Shown piece by piece: positions 1 to 18,531 of a stretch of DNA of 32,231 nt. The DNA is from a virus, in IMG/VR virus record IMGVR_UViG_3300045994_000454, positions 1-32,231 of that record; one strand, given 5' to 3'. The notes under the pieces were generated by a model. It saw only the letters and a list, made by a program, of their open reading frames with translations. It searched no databases and was not told the DNA's origin. The translations under genes were made by a program, and so were the position numbers. Each line of letters opens with the position of its first letter. Within the stretch, counting starts at the first letter, position 1.

Positions 1-290
1 CCGGACAGGTTGCCCGTGATGCCGAACAGGTTGCCCGTGATGTCATCCAGGTTGCCCGTGATGCCGGACAGGTTGCCCGTGATGCCGAACAGGTTGCCCG
101 TGATGCCGGACAGGTTGCCCGTGATGTCATCCAGGTTGCCCGTGATGCCGGACAGGTTGCCCGTGATGTCGGACAGGTTGCCCGTGATGTCGGACAGGTT
201 GCCCGTGATGCCTTCTGGAGCTCCGTCGACTACCTCTCCATTTAAATAATGATAGATGGTATTTTTTGTTCTGGTTAATGCTGGTTTCAT
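1..290 (-). CDS. Heptapeptide-repeat phage protein, truncated by window edge
   Basis: Starts at ATG 290 with an AAGGAAA ribosome site a few bases upstream and stays open to base 1, so the C-terminus is not seen. A non-repetitive leader of about 26 residues (it contains YHYLNGEVV and DGAPE) is followed by a 7-residue repeat with core ITGNL. The two residues after the leucine vary between units: SD, SG, DD and FG. At least ten units are present, each encoded by an exact 21-bp DNA repeat. Proteins with such a leader and G-D/N-rich heptads occur in phage early regions, and I infer a beta-solenoid-like fold. Function unknown. The gene lies leftward of the immunity region and reads away from it. 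Confidence 0.75.
   Translation of the reverse strand, partial: MKPALTRTKNTIYHYLNGEVVDGAPEGITGNLSDITGNLSDITGNLSGITGNLDDITGNLSGITGNLFGITGNLSGITGNLDDITGNLFGITGNLS
8..212. repeat. 21-bp tandem repeat, ten copies
   Basis: Units begin with GGTTGCCCGTGATG at 8, 29, 50, 71, 92, 113, 134, 155, 176 and 197. The first 14-15 bases are invariant and the last 6 vary among a few types (CCGGA, CCGAA, TCATC, TCGGA). The array keeps the minus-strand reading frame, since 21 bp equals seven codons, and runs off the left edge of the window. Confidence 0.97.
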
Positions 291-315
291 GGGGTTTCCT
301 TGGTTGTAAAATGGT

Positions 316-399
316 AAAGCGGTGGCGGTTCCTATCGACAAAACACACTACACTGCACCGGACTTATTACAGAGCCGGTGGACTCTGGCCGCCGCTTTT
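316..399. other. Nested inverted repeat between leftward genes
   Basis: An outer stem pairs 316-326 (AAAGCGGTGGC) with 389-399 (GCCGCCGCTTT) with one G-T mismatch. Inside it an exact 6-bp stem pairs 356-361 with 375-380. It fills most of the non-coding gap between the repeat-protein gene and the next minus-strand gene. A possible minus-strand promoter (TTGAGA at 421-426, 17 bp, TTTAAA at 398-403) overlaps the outer stem. Confidence 0.5.
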
Positions 400-451
400 T
401 AAAGGTCTCGATGAATAATTTCTCAAAGGGAGAATATTCACTTTCAAAAAC

Positions 452-481
452 TTTAAAAAACGCCCTTATTACCAAGGGCTA
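452..481 (-). terminator. Rho-independent terminator
   Basis: Read on the minus strand, GCCCTT/AAGGGC (462-467 with 474-479) forms a stem followed by a run of six T (455-460). It lies 25 bp past the stop of the minus-strand gene at 506-742. Confidence 0.8.
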
Positions 482-505
482 AAATGAGCACTGCTTGTAA
501 ATCGA

Positions 506-742
506 TTATTCGTGGTCTTTAACTTCCAGCATCAAATCTGCTTGAAAATAAGCAAGATCACGAATGTTTTTAAAATCAAACTCGCTGAGCGGCTTTAAAT
601 CTCCATCGTGATAGCTATTTGCCAGCATCCCCTGCATGGCTTTGGCGGCAAAGTATTGCCTCTTGGTAATCCCCATGCTTGTTTCTGTATTGCCATCCAA
701 AACTGGAAATGCGGGATAATTCGCCTCGGTACATTCACTCAT
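506..742 (-). CDS. Small conserved phage protein (GITKRQYFAAKAMQG type)
   Basis: 78 residues, starting at ATG 742 with AAGGAT as ribosome site. The central motif GITKRQYFAAKAMQGMLAN is a common signature of small cytoplasmic phage proteins of unknown function, seen in the accessory early regions of many siphophages. No catalytic motif is seen. It is the first gene after the repressor-controlled leftward promoter at 824-851 and is followed by its own terminator, so it is probably a short single-gene transcript shut off in the lysogen. The family assignment is from recognition of the motif; the role is unknown. Confidence 0.75.
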   Translation of the reverse strand: MSECTEANYPAFPVLDGNTETSMGITKRQYFAAKAMQGMLANSYHDGDLKPLSEFDFKNIRDLAYFQADLMLEVKDHE

Positions 743-823
743 GTCAATATCCTTTAAATAATCCCTATTATTACGCCGAGGAGGTTGTTTTTAGGTTGGT
801 AGTTAAATTGTTATGACGGTATG

Positions 824-851
824 ATTTTAGCAACATGCTAAATTATGTCAA
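824..851 (-). promoter_or_regulatory. Leftward sigma70 promoter, PL-like
   Basis: On the minus strand a perfect -35 TTGACA (846-851) is separated by 16 bp from a -10 TAAAAT (824-829). One operator fills the spacer and overlaps the -10; a second lies just upstream. It faces the gene at 506-742, giving a leader of about 75 nt. Confidence 0.75.
826..842. promoter_or_regulatory. Repressor operator A (leftward promoter)
   Basis: TTTAGCAACATGCTAAA is a perfect 7-bp inverted repeat with a 3-bp centre. It covers the spacer and overlaps the -10 box of the leftward promoter. It matches the operator next to the Cro-like gene. Confidence 0.8.
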
Positions 852-866
852 TAGCATCATGCTAAA
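850..866. promoter_or_regulatory. Repressor operator B (leftward promoter)
   Basis: AATAGCATCATGCTAAA matches the same operator at 15 of 17 symmetric positions and overlaps the -35 box. Its centre is 24 bp from operator A. Confidence 0.7.
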
Positions 867-935
867 TTTTATAAAAAATAAATTATATATCTGAAATTTA
901 TCCTGTTGAAATGGGGTTTAGCGAGAATTTTAGGC

Positions 936-960
936 AAAAAAATACCCGCGTTAAGCGGGT
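936..960 (-). terminator. Terminator 1 of a duplicated pair
   Basis: ACCCGC (944-949) pairs with GCGGGT (955-960). On the minus strand the stem is followed by a T-run (936-942). The flank ATTTTAGGCAAAAAAA (927-942) recurs before the next terminator. Confidence 0.7.
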
Positions 961-990
961 TTGATGTGAATGGTTTATATATTTTAGGCA

Positions 991-1022
991 AAAAAAAGCC
1001 CGTAAATTATACGGGCTTTTTT
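991..1022. terminator. Bidirectional terminator 2 of the pair
   Basis: GCCCGT (998-1003) pairs with ACGGGC (1011-1016), with an A-run on the left and a T-run on the right, so it works on both strands. It lies 14 bp past the stop of the 37-residue gene at 1036-1149. Confidence 0.8.
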
Positions 1023-1035
1023 AATTTGGTGATGT

Positions 1036-1149
1036 TTATGCTGCTAAAGGAATATTTAATGCTGTTTCAATGTTTGAAAGCATTTTATTATAATTATTAA
1101 AGAATTCAATCAGCGTATCAAGCCTATTAATCGCTTCTATATCGCTCAT
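1036..1149 (-). CDS. 37-residue protein, unknown function
   Basis: ATG at 1149 follows AAAGGG with a 9-base gap, a strong ribosome site. The reading frame gives 37 residues beginning MSDIEAINRL and ending IPLAA, predicted to form one or two amphipathic helices. The tandem terminator lies directly after its stop, which supports real expression as the last gene of a minus-strand unit with 1225-1569. I do not recognise a family. A small helical regulator or inhibitor is possible, but that is a guess. Confidence 0.6.
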   Translation of the reverse strand: MSDIEAINRLDTLIEFFNNYNKMLSNIETALNIPLAA

Positions 1150-1224
1150 AGTAACTACCCTTTCTGTTGATTATGTTTTTTAACCCATTGTATCTAAAAA
1201 CAATTATATTAAATAACTGCGTAT

Positions 1225-1569
1225 TCAATATAACATAGATTCAGACATTAGTAAACTAACATTATTATCAAAATCTGCCTTGTTGTCTTCATTAATTGCA
1301 ATGGTAATTGCTCTTAAATGGAGGGCGTAAGTTCTGATATTAGCCATTTTCATTCCGCTTTCAGGAGAAAAGTCATAATTTCTGGCGAGATCATCGAGCA
1401 GCGGTATAACGATAGTATCAAACAGCTTTGCTATTTCATGTATATTTGGATTCGGTAGGCTCATTAATTGAAAGCCGTAGAAGTTAGCATGATGCAAAAC
1501 CTTGTTGCAGGTAGTAACAACACTCTCCCATAAGTCATGGACCTTTTTATCTACCACTAAATTTTCCAT
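1225..1569 (-). CDS. Hypothetical helical protein (114 aa)
   Basis: Starts at ATG 1569 with AGGA about 8 bases upstream. 114 residues, mostly predicted helix, without membrane segments or metal-binding clusters. I do not recognise the family. A weak promoter-like pair (TTGGCA, then an AT-rich -10 about 17 bp on) lies within 60 bp upstream on the minus strand. It stands between the signal-peptide protein gene upstream and the 37-residue gene downstream, all in the same direction and in AT-rich DNA typical of lysogeny-side accessory genes. A product expressed in the lysogen is plausible from position only. Confidence 0.65.
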   Translation of the reverse strand: MENLVVDKKVHDLWESVVTTCNKVLHHANFYGFQLMSLPNPNIHEIAKLFDTIVIPLLDDLARNYDFSPESGMKMANIRTYALHLRAITIAINEDNKADFDNNVSLLMSESMLY

Positions 1570-1645
1570 ATTTTAATATCCTAAATATTTTATTATTCAA
1601 ATTACTGCCAACCAGATACCTAAAAAAACCAGTTAAGAAGGCTTA

Positions 1646-1927
1646 TTACTTATTTTTTCTTAACGCCTCGACATCATCAAGAAATTTCGCATGCGCTTTT
1701 ACTTTTTCACTGTATTCTAGCTGGGCTTGTTCGGCATAATATGCATCTCGCTGCATTGATGGACCTTCACACCACCCAGGGGGTAATTTTTTTTCATAGT
1801 CCTTAACCCAGGTACCAACCTTCCCATTTTCGTCTTTACATACAAAAATTGTTTCTGGGGCAGGTGGAGTGGCTCTTGCTTGCATTATTGGTATTAAAAA
1901 TACCGTCATTATTAGTATTATTTTCAT
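1646..1927 (-). CDS. Exported small protein with two cysteines
   Basis: The ATG at 1927 begins with MKIILIMTVFLIPIMQARA, which reads as a cleavable signal peptide ending in ARA. A GTG start 30 bp upstream is possible but would put ten polar residues before the signal. The mature part (~74 residues) has two cysteines (FVCKDENGK and PGWCEGP) that could form a periplasmic disulphide, then a charged helical tail ending LRKNK. Family not recognised. Placed just after the repressor gene on the same strand, it may be transcribed in the lysogen and alter the cell envelope, for example as an exclusion factor; this is inference from position. Confidence 0.6.
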   Translation of the reverse strand: MKIILIMTVFLIPIMQARATPPAPETIFVCKDENGKVGTWVKDYEKKLPPGWCEGPSMQRDAYYAEQAQLEYSEKVKAHAKFLDDVEALRKNK

Positions 1928-1995
1928 AATTTTATGGATATCTATATTAGAGTACACTTTATTTTTTTAAATCCTGGTACTTTGTTTATGAACTA

Positions 1996-2010
1996 CCCTA
2001 CCAAGTAGGG
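1996..2010. other. Short perfect hairpin after repressor gene
   Basis: CCCTAC (1996-2001) pairs with GTAGGG (2005-2010) around a CAA loop, 4 bp beyond the repressor stop. There is no T-run on the minus strand, so it is not a standard terminator; it may stabilise the 3' end of the transcript. Confidence 0.4.
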
Positions 2011-2013
2011 ATA

Positions 2014-2772
2014 TTATTCTTCATCTTCTTCATTGTTCTGGCTGTCAACAATTTGGTCATCATGACGTTTGTGCCGAAATGTATAACTATCCGCCATCTG
2101 TTCCCATGTTTTACCTATTTCTGGTTTATGGGATTCTTCAAGCGCCTGTGCCGCTACCTTCTCTTTTCTACGCTCACCGATGTTTATTCTCCGCTGGGTT
2201 TGTCGAGCATCAAGCCGACTTTTTGCGTCTTCGTATGACTCTCCATCTATTCTTGGCAACCGCATCCCTCCATCGTGATCGGGATTGTAATCCAGTGATT
2301 CTAGGTTTACCGGCATTCCCCGGTATGATCCTGTTATAGGTAAGGTCGGTGGCTTTTGATCGGCCTGTGCCGGAGGTTTTAAGGGTTTTGGCAACTCATG
2401 TATGGGTGCGGCTATGGTTTTACTTATATCCTGGATGGTCGAATTACCCGTCAATGACGACACCACCCTGAAAATCATTAACCTATCCGCTTCAGATAGC
2501 TTTTCAATGGCCTCAACTAAAGGGTCAGCAGTCTTTTGTTCCAGATCTTCATAATGTGTTTCATCCATCCAACCGTAAGGTTTATTGACAATAAGTTCTA
2601 TTTTTCTGGCCAGCTCATTCCCCATATCCCGTTTAGTTTTTGTGCTAAGTATTTGGCTTATATAAGCAGGAGCCGTATCTATTTTATCGGCAAATTTACC
2701 CTTCCTTAGCCCCGACTCATTAATCAGTAGCTCAAGATTATATTTTCTAATATCTGCAATTGTGCGCTCCAT
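2014..2772 (-). CDS. CI-like HTH repressor without visible S24 domain
   Basis: Probable master repressor of lysogeny. I chose the ATG at 2772 (252 aa) over 2814 or 2829: the typical repressor opening MERTIADIRKYNLELLI starts there, and all three operators then fall in the gap before the divergent Cro-like gene. An HTH domain lies at about residues 5-62 (KFADKIDTAPAYISQIL, then the conserved GNELARKIE and KPYGWMD). The rest is a proline-rich stretch near 125-150 and a charged tail ending NNEEDEE. The Ser/Lys pattern of a LexA/CI-type self-cleaving protease was not found, so induction by RecA-driven cleavage is doubtful. The start has only a weak ribosome site. Confidence 0.85.
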   Translation of the reverse strand: MERTIADIRKYNLELLINESGLRKGKFADKIDTAPAYISQILSTKTKRDMGNELARKIELIVNKPYGWMDETHYEDLEQKTADPLVEAIEKLSEADRLMIFRVVSSLTGNSTIQDISKTIAAPIHELPKPLKPPAQADQKPPTLPITGSYRGMPVNLESLDYNPDHDGGMRLPRIDGESYEDAKSRLDARQTQRRINIGERRKEKVAAQALEESHKPEIGKTWEQMADSYTFRHKRHDDQIVDSQNNEEDEE

Positions 2773-14561: not shown

Positions 14562-14589
14562 AGGCCGCCTAATCAGCGGCCTTTTTTTT
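14562..14589 (+). terminator. Terminator between protease and capsid genes
   Basis: AGGCCGC (14562-14568) pairs with GCGGCCT (14576-14582), followed by eight T. It lies within the late operon. Confidence 0.88.
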
Positions 14590-14611
14590 GTTAAAAAATC
14601 AGGAAAAAGCA

Positions 14612-15829
14612 ATGCCAAAATCAATTCAGCAGCACCGCGAACACTATACCGAGCTGGTCAACTCAGCTAACAACATACTCGCTCAAAAAGGCGATCAACT
14701 TTGGACTAAAGACGACCAGGTTAAATTTGACGGCTTTATGGATCAAGCCTATCGAGTCAAAGATCAGATAGATTCAATCCAGCGCATCATGGATCAGGAT
14801 GTCGAAGAGAATTTCCGAGACGTCGATAATTTCCGCAAAGATGGCAAACAAATCAGCGATGCAAAACGTAGTGTTGATGTATTTATGCGTAAGTCATTCA
14901 AAGAAATGAGCATTGAAGACGCGTTGTTGATCCGTAACACTATGTCTACAACGACCGGTTCTGAAGGTGGCTATACCGTTCAATCCGAAGTTGCATCAAC
15001 TTTTATTGATGCTCTTAAAGCATTTGGCTTTATGCGTGCTGAAGCGTCACAGATCACTACATCGATGGGTAATAACCTGTCTTTCCCGACTACCGACGGC
15101 ACATCAGAAACAGGTGAGTGGGTCGCACAAAACACTACCGCATCGGATCTTGATGTCGTACTGGGTACGGTAGCGGTAAACGTCTTCAAAGCTGGTTCAA
15201 AAGTAATTACCATCCCGATCGAGCTATTACAAGATTCAAATATTGATATTCAGGCATTGGTATTTGCCCGAATGATTGCCCGTATCGGTCGCATTGCTAA
15301 CACTGGCTATACCGTCGGATCTGGTACTGGACAGCCGCAAGGCTTTGTCGGGGTCTCGTCTGTTGGTAAAGTTGGCACCACCGGCCAAACATTAACCGTT
15401 ATCTATGATGACCTGGTTGATTTAATCGATAGCGTTGACGTGGCTTATCAGGAAAACGGCGCTAAATCATGCTTTATGTTCAACCAAACCACCCGTAAAG
15501 TTTTGCGCAAATTAAAAGATACAGCAGGCCGTCCGATCTGGACACCTTCTTACGATGCAGGCATTGCAGGCGCACACTCTGACCAGCTCTTAGGTTATGA
15601 CGTTTGCTTAAACAACGATATGGCCGTCCCAGCTGCCAATGCTAAATCAATCGGTTTTGGTCAATTCGATAAATACCTGATTCGTGATGCGTTGGAACTT
15701 TCATTGTTCAGATTTGATGATTCAGCCTATATGAAAAAGGGTCAAGTGGGCTTCCTGGGCTGGGCGCGTACCGGTGGTAACTTGCTTGATACCGCTGCTA
15801 TCAAGTTGTACCAACACTCAGCGACTTAA
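14612..15829 (+). CDS. Major capsid protein, HK97 family
   Basis: 405 residues from ATG 14612, with AGGAAA upstream; an upstream TTG frame extension is less likely. The N-terminal ~110 residues are helical and charged, as in the delta/scaffold domain removed by the prohead protease. The mature part starts near MSTTTGSEGGYTVQSE and contains typical core segments (SFPTTDGTSETGEWVAQN, GSGTGQPQGFVG, GYDVCLNNDM). The cut site is inferred. Flanked by terminators on both sides, so its mRNA can be separately stable and abundant. Confidence 0.95.
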   Translation: MPKSIQQHREHYTELVNSANNILAQKGDQLWTKDDQVKFDGFMDQAYRVKDQIDSIQRIMDQDVEENFRDVDNFRKDGKQISDAKRSVDVFMRKSFKEMSIEDALLIRNTMSTTTGSEGGYTVQSEVASTFIDALKAFGFMRAEASQITTSMGNNLSFPTTDGTSETGEWVAQNTTASDLDVVLGTVAVNVFKAGSKVITIPIELLQDSNIDIQALVFARMIARIGRIANTGYTVGSGTGQPQGFVGVSSVGKVGTTGQTLTVIYDDLVDLIDSVDVAYQENGAKSCFMFNQTTRKVLRKLKDTAGRPIWTPSYDAGIAGAHSDQLLGYDVCLNNDMAVPAANAKSIGFGQFDKYLIRDALELSLFRFDDSAYMKKGQVGFLGWARTGGNLLDTAAIKLYQHSAT

Positions 15830-15879: not shown

Positions 15880-16098
15880 ATGACCGAAAATACAACCGAA
15901 GCGCAGGACTCAAGCGCGACAATATCGCCGACTTTAGTATCAGTCAGAATTTTAACCCCAGTTGAACTTGACGGCATTAGCTACAAGTCTGGCGTGCATG
16001 CAGATCTACCAGCAGAGTTGGCGGCCGCGCTGGTTGAATCAGGTCAAGCAGACGACAACGCTGAAGCAGTTGCTTACGCCTTATCACAAACTAATTAA
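15880..16098 (+). CDS. Small head-region protein (72 aa)
   Basis: 72 residues. After a polar start, VRILTPVELDGISYKSGVHADLP (split here from the rest) and ELAAALVESGQADDNAEAV form a short domain common in phage head regions, often of the kind 'VLxPVxxDGxxYxxGdxxdLpxxxAxxLIxsGxA'. Role unknown; a decoration or head-completion factor is possible from position. The following gene begins with a divergent copy of this domain. Confidence 0.7.
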   Translation: MTENTTEAQDSSATISPTLVSVRILTPVELDGISYKSGVHADLPAELAAALVESGQADDNAEAVAYALSQTN

Positions 16099-16110
16099 TC
16101 GGAAATTTAT

Positions 16111-17832
16111 ATGTCTACTACGGTACGTTTACTTTCAAATTACATATTATCCGGGGTACCGTATAAGGCAGATTCTTTAGTTTCAATAGATTCTACGCTT
16201 GCGACACAGTTGGTGGCTTCAGGTATTGCAGACAACAGCTCCGCGGCTGTTACCAACGAGATTAATGAGGGAGAAATTGTACATTATCCTAATATTGAGG
16301 GAGCGAATTATAACGGTAGTATTTATAATGGAATTTACCAGGATAATAATATAGGCATTTACAGCAATAAAGGAACTGGCATAATAAGTAGACTATCTGT
16401 TGTTCCAGATTTTGACCCTTTAAGCATCCCTGGATTAGCGTTAAATTTAGATGCTAGTGAAGGGATGATGAAAGATTCAATTGCTGGTGCCTATACTATT
16501 GGTGACATCGTAGCATCTATTCCCGACAGGTCAGGTAATGGTCATACTGTTACAATAACTGGCTCACCTGTAGTCGATCAAATAAACGGAGTTACAGCGT
16601 TAAAATTAAATGGAACTACTCAATATTTAACTACAGATAGTTTTGTAGATGCATCGTGGGCTAATACTGGCTTTACTATGTTCCATGTCGGAACCAGACG
16701 AGATGCCACATCATCGGCACAGCAAGTTCTAGGTGAAATTGGTGGGGCCGCTGCGGCTTTTATTAGTACATTTCCAACACAAGGTGCGAGTGGAGCAGCG
16801 CACTCATGTTCCATTGGTAATGTTGCTAATAACGGATCAACTGCTCACTCTCAAGCATCTGGTGTATTCATGCTTGGATATTCTGGAGATTCAGTTGCTA
16901 ATAGCAGAGTTTGTGGTGGGGTAAATTCGTTAATAAGTCAACCTGCAAGTGCTATTGGAACGCCAGGAGGAGCGCAATTTAATGCAGGAGCTGATTATGA
17001 TTGGTTTAAATATCAATTAGTATCCGGTGGTGCGTGGGGTCAGTCTATAACATCGGCAGTCGTTATAGGAGATCATACACCTAGTCCCGGAACTTATAGA
17101 TGGGATGGTAATTGGGGACAAACATTACTGTGGAAAGGTTTATTGACGGCAGCACAAGTAGGACAAGTGCAGGGCTGGTTAATGTCCAAGTGGGGGTTTG
17201 ATTTACCATCCTATTTATTTGTAGGTGATAGCCGTGTAGCTGGCGATGGTTCAACTGGTCAAATCGGTCAAAGTCAATATGACGGAACTACCAACTTACC
17301 AAACCAATTTAAGAGTTTAATGGGTGGTGAGTCTGTTGTATCTGTACGATCAATGGCGCATAGTGGATTTACTATAGCTAATTTCCTAAATATATTAGAT
17401 CAAAATAAACTATCCACAGCGATGTATAATCCTTATACGTTAAAATATCAAGGAGTTGTATTATATATTGGTATAAATGATCTTACTTATGGTGCCATGG
17501 CAGGAGTCACTTTATATGCGTTATACAAAAAGCTAGGTATAAAATTTGCAAAATTAGGATACTCGGTAACAGCGGTAACGATAACACCATCAGCACATGC
17601 CAATTACGGCATAGTTGGTAGCGCACAGCAATTAGCTATCGAAGCTAACAGGGTTATTTTCAATAATTTATTGGCTGCCGATTATAAAACCTTTGCAGTA
17701 AAACTGGTGGATTTACGTAATCGCTCAGAATTAGCAGACCCATCAAATGCTACTTATTATGCAGACAAACTACACGGCACTGATATTGGCTATGGCGTGA
17801 TAGCGCAAGAAATTAAAACACAAGGAACATAA
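16111..17832 (+). CDS. LamG-like lectin plus SGNH-hydrolase protein
   Basis: 573 residues. Residues 4-46 (VRLLSNYILSGVPYKADSLV, then LVASGIADNSSAAV) repeat the small domain of the preceding gene. Residues ~105-365 are a concanavalin/LamG-like domain (DRSGNGHTVTITG at 139-151, LKLNGTTQYL, ending LLTAAQVGQVQGWLMSKWG). Residues ~367-570 are an SGNH/GDSL hydrolase: VGDSR with Ser374, block II Gly419, GIND with Asn456, and D552-K-L-H555. All four blocks are present, so it should be an active esterase, perhaps on acetylated surface glycans. The coding sequence is AT-richer than its neighbours, which suggests acquisition. Virion display on the capsid is inferred from the N-terminal domain and position. 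Confidence 0.8.
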   Translation: MSTTVRLLSNYILSGVPYKADSLVSIDSTLATQLVASGIADNSSAAVTNEINEGEIVHYPNIEGANYNGSIYNGIYQDNNIGIYSNKGTGIISRLSVVPDFDPLSIPGLALNLDASEGMMKDSIAGAYTIGDIVASIPDRSGNGHTVTITGSPVVDQINGVTALKLNGTTQYLTTDSFVDASWANTGFTMFHVGTRRDATSSAQQVLGEIGGAAAAFISTFPTQGASGAAHSCSIGNVANNGSTAHSQASGVFMLGYSGDSVANSRVCGGVNSLISQPASAIGTPGGAQFNAGADYDWFKYQLVSGGAWGQSITSAVVIGDHTPSPGTYRWDGNWGQTLLWKGLLTAAQVGQVQGWLMSKWGFDLPSYLFVGDSRVAGDGSTGQIGQSQYDGTTNLPNQFKSLMGGESVVSVRSMAHSGFTIANFLNILDQNKLSTAMYNPYTLKYQGVVLYIGINDLTYGAMAGVTLYALYKKLGIKFAKLGYSVTAVTITPSAHANYGIVGSAQQLAIEANRVIFNNLLAADYKTFAVKLVDLRNRSELADPSNATYYADKLHGTDIGYGVIAQEIKTQGT

Positions 17833-17937
17833 TGCGATACTCGCAATCTACGCACTAATCACCGCCTTAGCCGGCGGGATAGTCTGAAACGCCAGCGCCT
17901 TAATTTATAGAAAAATAAACCCGCAATACCAAAAACT
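17833..17937. other. Gap after the insertion, nothing recognised
   Basis: 105 bp between the hydrolase and connector genes. No convincing frame, hairpin with T-run, or promoter. It may be a scar of the insertion of the hydrolase gene. Confidence 0.4.
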
Positions 17938-18531
17938 ATGACCTACGTAATAAAAACCCAACCGGTGACCGAACCGGTAACGCTTGCAGAGATGCGATCG
18001 CATTTAGGTATCACTCAATTGACTGATACCGCACGCGATGTCATTATCACTGGCCGCATTACCAGTGCGCGGGTTTGGTGTGAGCATTACACGCGGAGCT
18101 CATATATTACTCAAACAATGGTCAGCTATACCGTTGATTTCCCTTACAACGTACTCACCAACCATCGAATTAATCTAAAGGCCCCGTTACAATCAGTTAC
18201 ATCTGTTACCTACTTAGATTCAACCGGAACCCGGCAAACATTAAGCCCGTCACTCTATTTAATAGACCTAGTCAACGCCTGCATCGAGCCAGCTTTCGGC
18301 ACGGTATGGCCTAATGCACGAACCCAATTAAATAGCGTACAAGTCGAGTATGTCAGCGGCTATGGCAATGCGGCCTCGGTCCCAGAACCGATAAAAGACG
18401 CCATTCGCTTTATCGTCGGCCAGTGGGAAACCTTTCAAACCAGCATGGAAGGGATAAGCAGGGTTTTTACCATCCCCAATGCCGCCAAACAGCTGCTTGA
18501 TAATTACATCGATATGCGGGAGTATTTTTAA
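17938..18531 (+). CDS. Head-tail connector, phiE125 gp8 / gp6-like
   Basis: 197 residues. Typical start VTEPVTLAEMRSHLGI followed by DVIITGRITSARVWCEHYTR, LKAPLQSVTSVTYLDSTGT and the C-terminal PEPIKDAIRFIVGQWE. These match the phiE125 gp8 / HK97 gp6 connector family that forms the ring under the portal. Stop and next start overlap (TAATG at 18529-18533). Confidence 0.88.
   Translation: MTYVIKTQPVTEPVTLAEMRSHLGITQLTDTARDVIITGRITSARVWCEHYTRSSYITQTMVSYTVDFPYNVLTNHRINLKAPLQSVTSVTYLDSTGTRQTLSPSLYLIDLVNACIEPAFGTVWPNARTQLNSVQVEYVSGYGNAASVPEPIKDAIRFIVGQWETFQTSMEGISRVFTIPNAAKQLLDNYIDMREYF

What the first reader, a model, noticed from the sequence alone, without database searches (positions are those of the whole stretch)
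15880..17832. Capsid-adjacent lectin-esterase cargo built on a duplicated head domain
The 573-residue protein joins a copy of the small head-region domain found in the preceding gene to a LamG-like lectin and an SGNH esterase with all four catalytic blocks. Base composition is AT-richer than the neighbours and a 105-bp non-coding scar follows. The design suggests a glycan-binding, glycan-deacylating enzyme displayed on the capsid, not on the tail, perhaps aiding adhesion to or passage through host polysaccharide. I know of no described system with this arrangement.
Basis: partly seen in the sequence, partly recalled or inferred. Interest (0 to 1): 0.75.

Follow-up and report, generated by a model that had tools for sequence, protein, structure and literature searches.

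The report
Head-tagged sugar-coat esterase of a phage
A phage gene next to the capsid gene joins a copy of a small conserved capsid-neighbour domain to an esterase-type enzyme of a kind that often trims sugar polymers, and the same tag-plus-enzyme design recurs in many other phages and prophages, which suggests that these phages carry sugar-trimming enzymes on their heads rather than only on their tails.

Summary
Residues 1-63 of the 573-aa protein (16111-17832) are a divergent copy of the 72-aa protein before it. A profile built only from other phages' unfused post-capsid proteins finds it at E=8e-10; the next window ORF is at 0.9. The C-terminus is an SGNH esterase (E=1.6e-8). The LamG lectin was not confirmed.

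The design recurs. The small domain follows the capsid gene in 107 of 116 relatives. Tagged copies carry other SGNH enzymes, polysaccharide deacetylases or an endosialidase barrel. A search for the tag alone in 393 genomes gave 23 usable hits, nearly all heading 440-960-aa frames; 17 lie 250-450 bp after a capsid gene.

The modelled tag resembles lambda gpFI's C-terminal domain (Z 4.0); gpFI binds the prohead lattice.

Best reading: a modular head-module glycan esterase docked on the capsid by a gpFI/DUF7210-like tag. Virion and capsid location are inferred. Against strict head display, some tagged genes lie before the terminase or near the tape measure, and the post-capsid slot also takes lysis-like genes. 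No isolated phage record matched along the tag.

The parts
14588..15829 (+). Major capsid protein (HK97 family), context for the slot
   Evidence: PF05065 E=5e-57; phrog_10
15880..16098 (+). Free-standing copy of the tag domain (72 aa), post-capsid protein of gpFI/DUF7210-like type
   Evidence: Profile of other phages' post-capsid proteins E=2e-18; same place in 107/116 relatives
16111..16302 (+). N-terminal tag domain of the 573-aa protein (residues 1-64)
   Evidence: E=8e-10 with a profile that excludes both window proteins; keeps Arg6, Leu8, Asp41, Ala46, Val47; AF2 pLDDT about 96 over residues 1-60
16303..17208 (+). Middle region (residues 65-366), possible beta-rich carbohydrate-binding region; LamG assignment unconfirmed
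   Evidence: No Pfam or PDB match; lectin reading is from motifs only
17209..17829 (+). SGNH/GDSL hydrolase domain (about residues 367-573); Ser374, Gly419, Asn456, Asp552, His555
   Evidence: PF13472 E=1.6e-8, 1.5e-9 for the domain alone; profile match to solved GDSL proteins E=1e-5
17833..17937 (+). 105-bp stretch without an assigned gene; possible relic of another slot gene
   Evidence: relic reading is inference
17938..18531 (+). Head-tail connector, downstream border of the slot
   Evidence: PF05135 E=3e-6; phrog_442 E=3e-19

Best explanation
The gene encodes a modular glycan esterase carried in the head module. Shown: its first ~63 residues are a copy of the small domain that directly follows the capsid gene in this phage group, and its C-terminus is an SGNH hydrolase. 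Shown: the same tag, and a diverged form of it, heads other large proteins that carry SGNH esterases, CE4-type polysaccharide deacetylases or an endosialidase barrel, mostly directly behind the capsid gene and the free-standing domain. Inferred: the tag docks the protein on the outer capsid surface, the way the similarly folded C-terminal domain of lambda gpFI is thought to bind the prohead capsid lattice, so the virion carries an enzyme that removes acyl groups from host capsule, slime or biofilm polysaccharide and aids adsorption or passage. Inferred: the AT-rich cargo was acquired recently behind a retained tag. My weights: tag homology 0.95, esterase fold 0.97, presence in the virion 0.7, on the capsid exterior 0.5.
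For: Tag homology. Esterase. The tag's free-standing homologue follows the capsid gene in 107/116 relatives. Cargo swapping behind the same tag: L003, L019, L021 (deacetylase E=5e-10), L141 (GDSL E=2e-10). Diverged tag homologous (hhalign E=7e-7; 34/42 against 0/42 shuffled) and heading deacetylases L040, L081, SGNH enzymes L097, L056, L184, L178 and endosialidase barrel L172. Independent genome test: 17 of 23 tag hits 250-450 bp behind a Phage_capsid domain, where checked mostly 2-5 bp behind a free-standing tag gene. Fold resemblance to gpFI C-terminal domain, which lies behind the lambda capsid gene and whose protein is described as bound to the gpE lattice (PMC4856287). The window also has a gpJ-like tail protein, so this is not its only candidate receptor-binding protein.
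Against: No virion data. The gpFI resemblance is weak (Z 4.0; ribosomal L9 and GINS domains score as well or better; hhalign to gpFI E=0.058), and gpFI is an assembly chaperone that, to my knowledge, is not kept in mature lambda. Tagged genes also lie before the terminase (five cases), behind the connector (L033, L055, L081, L056) and before the tape measure (L141). A DUF7210-like fold also occurs in a 51-aa VP882 protein that by length may be the gene before the tail sheath. LamG lectin unconfirmed; substrate unknown.
Confidence: 0.5

Rival explanations
1. Neck- or tail-attached spike: the tag docks on the neck or tail tube, and the protein is an ordinary side-spike esterase whose gene happens to sit in the head module.
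For: Tagged genes in L141 and L056 lie in or near the tail module. SGNH and deacetylase relatives of the cargos are often annotated as minor tail proteins in isolated phages. L172 carries a barrel domain known from endosialidase tailspikes.
Against: The tag's free-standing homologue is tied to the capsid gene, not to tail genes; most tagged genes are directly behind it.
Confidence: 0.2
2. Non-virion accessory enzyme (moron): made in the late phase, it trims host polysaccharide at lysis or helps the lysogen, and the tag is a leftover or serves another role.
For: The slot between capsid and connector is a hot spot with varied content, including lysis-like genes in L141. The cargo is compositionally foreign. 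PHROGs files the family matched by L056 and L141 under moron/auxiliary 'lipase'.
Against: The tag keeps the family's conserved residues and recurs on unrelated enzymes in many prophages, which a useless leftover would not explain. The genes are co-directional with the capsid gene and often 2-5 bp behind the free-standing tag gene.
Confidence: 0.17
3. Internal head cargo: the tag binds the inner capsid surface or scaffold and the enzyme is packaged and ejected with the DNA.
For: A virion GDSL esterase of Vibrio phage Peru-2 is abundant in virions, unresolved by cryo-EM, and its authors speculate that it lies in the internal core (PMC13320782).
Against: A polysaccharide-active enzyme is most useful outside the cell; gpFI, the nearest fold relative with a known partner, assists terminase docking and so presumably acts on the prohead's outside (inference).
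Confidence: 0.08

Closest known systems
RcGTA head spikes (base Rcc01079, fibre Rcc01080)
   Same: Capsid-anchored proteins that mediate attachment to host capsule polysaccharide (PMC7296036)
   Different: Jellyroll base plus separate fibre on pentamers; no enzyme described there; no sequence relation seen; whole-protein PDB search gave no match
Lambda gpFI (Packaging_FI, PF14000)
   Same: Gene directly behind the capsid gene; C-terminal domain of similar fold (Z 4.0); described as bound to the prohead gpE lattice
   Different: No sequence-level membership; packaging chaperone without enzyme cargo
DUF7210 phage proteins, e.g. P74p89 of Thermus phage P74-26
   Same: Small domain directly behind the capsid gene; profile match hhalign E=1e-5; viral model hits named DUF7210
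   Different: Free-standing, function unknown; window proteins do not reach the Pfam cut-off
Host-binding decoration proteins (T4 Hoc, SPP1 gp12, phi29 gp8.5)
   Same: Accessory proteins on the capsid that interact with cell surfaces (PMC7602432)
   Different: Different folds; binding only, no esterase or deacetylase domain described there
Tail fibres and tailspikes with SGNH esterase or deacetylase domains (e.g. Possum, Aristophanes, Moo19/B2)
   Same: Glycan-deacylating virion enzymes of related type (titles and abstracts)
   Different: On the tail, not tagged with a post-capsid domain
Esterase gene 4 of Gordonia phage DoobyDoo
   Same: Esterase gene inside the head module, between portal and capsid genes; related to the SGNH part of L097
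   Different: Different slot; the match covers L097 residues 142-537, not the tag

Membership tests
SGNH/GDSL hydrolase (PF13472) | Profile score above curated cut-off | tested here: met
   35.7 bits against 32.9, E=1.6e-8
SGNH/GDSL hydrolase (PF13472) | Catalytic blocks I (Ser), II (Gly), III (Asn), V (Asp..His) | tested here: met
   Ser374, Gly419, Asn456, Asp552/His555; block II placement by eye
SGNH/GDSL hydrolase (PF13472) | Esterase activity on an acylated substrate | not testable with these tools
   needs an assay
Post-capsid tag family of this phage group | Match to a profile of the free-standing proteins that excludes the query | tested here: met
   E=8e-10, next window ORF 0.87
DUF7210 (PF23843) | Pfam score above cut-off | tested here: not met
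   72-aa protein 12 bits against 27; tag region no match
DUF7210 (PF23843) | Fold shared with named DUF7210 proteins | tested here: inconclusive
   Foldseek E=3e-3 to 4e-3, prob 1.00
Lambda gpFI / Packaging_FI | Sequence-level match | tested here: not met
   hhalign E=0.058, prob 0.9%
Lambda gpFI / Packaging_FI | Fold of the C-terminal domain | tested here: inconclusive
   Z 4.0, rmsd 1.7, 43 aligned; other folds score higher
LamG-like lectin | Profile or structure match of residues 89-366 | tested here: inconclusive
   No Pfam match at E<=10, no PDB match below 0.85; no fold model of this region
Capsid decoration / head fibre protein | Present on the capsid surface of virions | not testable with these tools
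   metagenomic viral contig, no virions at hand

The most novel reading that the evidence does not exclude
A widespread class of capsid-displayed carbohydrate esterases, deacetylases and spike-like enzymes exists in tailed phages of Proteobacteria, built by fusing swappable glycan-active cargo to a duplicated gpFI/DUF7210-like capsid-docking domain: a natural capsid display system for enzymes.
Probability: 0.45. Interest if true: 0.8.

Novelty: new variant of a known kind. Interest (0 to 1): 0.62.

Why it matters
Phage glycan-degrading enzymes are normally sought on tails. If a capsid-docking tag carries them on heads, many copies per virion would be possible, annotation of the 'hypothetical' genes behind capsid genes would change, and a domain of about 60 residues would become a candidate natural tag for displaying enzymes on phage heads. 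It also gives a testable role for the conserved but unexplained post-capsid DUF7210-like proteins.

Tried and rejected
Direct search for relatives of the whole 573-aa protein in viral contigs and of it, its middle and its esterase part in phage records: no full-length relative, only a 43% piece of the esterase domain at E=2e-3 in two Rhizobium phages. Single-sequence AF2 of the 573-aa protein: useless (pLDDT 31). Tag profiles against PDB sequences: nothing relevant. LamG by Pfam and PDB: none. SGNH alignment search of viral contigs: no confirmed relative. tblastn of tagged cargos in isolated phages: nothing for L048, L056, L026 (first 100 residues), L173 and L184; only enzyme-domain matches outside the tag for L040 and L097. 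A PF13472 search of related contigs missed L003's SGNH, so that assignment rests on motifs. Gene position as proof of head display: rejected after finding tagged genes before the terminase and near the tape measure, and lysis-like genes in the same slot. Recount: one search computed the adjacency chance for 18 of 23; the list gives 17 of 23, same conclusion. Some of the 23 are near-identical copies (three in G361, two in G405), so independent cases are fewer.

Full report
What the window is. The 32,231-base window is a whole IMG/VR virus record. It holds a siphovirus-like late operon: terminase (by position), portal, ClpP-type protease, HK97-family capsid protein, connector, tail terminator, tape measure and gpJ-like host specificity protein. 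Its closest capsid relative in a bacterial genome record lies in a Methylococcaceae MAG (77%), so a methanotroph host is likely (inference).

Observation. The two ORFs are real. Residues 4-47 of the 573-aa protein match residues 21-64 of the 72-aa protein (39%, E=4e-6). To avoid circularity I built a profile from 90 unfused post-capsid proteins of other phages, with neither window protein in it. Among 243 window ORFs it finds the 72-aa ORF (2e-18) and the 573-aa ORF (8e-10); the next is at 0.87. The C-terminus is an SGNH/GDSL hydrolase with Ser374, Gly419, Asn456, Asp552 and His555 in the catalytic blocks. The middle third gave no LamG match. The gene is AT-rich, most clearly at third codon positions (25.7% GC3 against 45%, p=1e-19).

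The tag domain across relatives. Capsid-protein relatives were collected from viral contigs and bacterial genomes. In 107 of 116 loci with enough sequence, the small domain starts within 500 bp of the capsid stop codon. An alignment of 96 domains shows one invariant residue (Arg6) and four nearly invariant ones, all kept in the 573-aa protein. AF2 with this alignment gives a confident small alpha/beta fold.

The tag is reused. Five other loci carry the same tag form on another protein: L003 (579 aa, SGNH motifs by eye), L004 (cut by the contig end), L019 (167 aa, beta domain), L021 (603 aa, polysaccharide deacetylase, E=5e-10) and L141, a prophage in a genome of the same family as the Methylococcaceae MAG (617 aa, GDSL, E=2e-10). 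A diverged form, with the consensus MTIxLL...T.TETALVAAKVATTNLTGG, is homologous by profile comparison (E=7e-7) and by a shuffle control (34/42 against 0/42). It heads deacetylases (L040, L081), SGNH enzymes (L097, L056, L184, L178) and an endosialidase beta-barrel protein (L172).

Independent genome test. The diverged tag alone was searched in 393 genomes of one family (that of a Massilia genome). It gave 24 hits in 17 genomes, one of them a fragment and nearly all the others heading frames of 440-960 aa. Phage_capsid domains were located separately: 17 of 23 hits start 250-450 bp behind one. Where checked, the order is mostly capsid - free-standing tag gene - tagged gene (2-5 bp later) - connector. 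Five lie 6.5-8 kb before a capsid gene, upstream of the terminase region, and one has no capsid hit.

What the tag may do. Among solved structures the model resembles the C-terminal domain of lambda gpFI (Z 4.0, rmsd 1.7, 43 residues), though ribosomal L9 and GINS domains score as well or better. [quoted passage not shown] Among viral models the best named hits are DUF7210 proteins. P74p89 of phage P74-26, a DUF7210 protein by Pfam, directly follows the capsid gene. I conclude that the tag is most likely a capsid-docking domain of gpFI/DUF7210 type; membership in either family is not shown.

Mechanism. The best-supported explanation is a head-docked enzyme that removes acyl groups from host surface polysaccharide and aids adsorption or passage. 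The steps shown are tag homology, enzyme family and recurrence with different cargos. The steps inferred are presence in the virion, outer capsid location and substrate. Rivals are a neck or tail spike, internal cargo (as speculated for the virion GDSL esterase of phage Peru-2, PMC13320782), and a non-virion accessory enzyme. Gene position does not decide between them, because the slot behind the capsid gene also takes lysis-like and untagged cargo genes and tagged genes also lie elsewhere in the late operon.

Known systems. RcGTA head spikes are the nearest functional precedent: capsid-anchored and used for attachment to the host capsule (PMC7296036). Host-binding decoration proteins are reviewed in PMC7602432. 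Esterase or deacetylase activity is known for tail fibres and tailspikes. No isolated phage record matched the tagged proteins along the tag; distant relatives could be missed by tblastn. I rate it a new variant of a known kind.

Noticed in passing
window 250-2220: The lowest GC of the window (about 35% over 1.7 kb) lies near its start, not at the 573-aa gene.
   Followed up: no
L141 5384-6026 (reverse complement): In this Methylococcaceae-family prophage the post-capsid slot holds what look like a small membrane protein and a spanin-like gene, so the slot also takes lysis-type genes (my reading).
   Followed up: partly
L123 8199-12661: Post-capsid slot of a Massilia soli prophage holds a 1083-aa protein with a PcRGLX-like domain (E=4e-7) and a 404-aa esterase-like protein, neither with the tag.
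   Followed up: partly
L011 7995-10715: Post-capsid slot with an untagged 407-aa alpha/beta-hydrolase-like protein (sub-cut-off Pfam matches) and a 495-aa protein.
   Followed up: no
L026 8065-9072: A 335-aa integrase-like ORF sits in the post-capsid slot behind the tagged 864-aa gene (my reading).
   Followed up: no
L002 7538-9190; L019 7217-8608: Untagged 463-550-aa proteins with tandem low-complexity repeats share the same slot; no Pfam match for the L002 one.
   Followed up: no
L007 2237-2590 and similar loci: Many post-capsid proteins have an N-terminal extension that itself looks like a second, diverged copy of the tag domain; Pfam sees DUF7210 there at 5e-4, below cut-off.
   Followed up: partly
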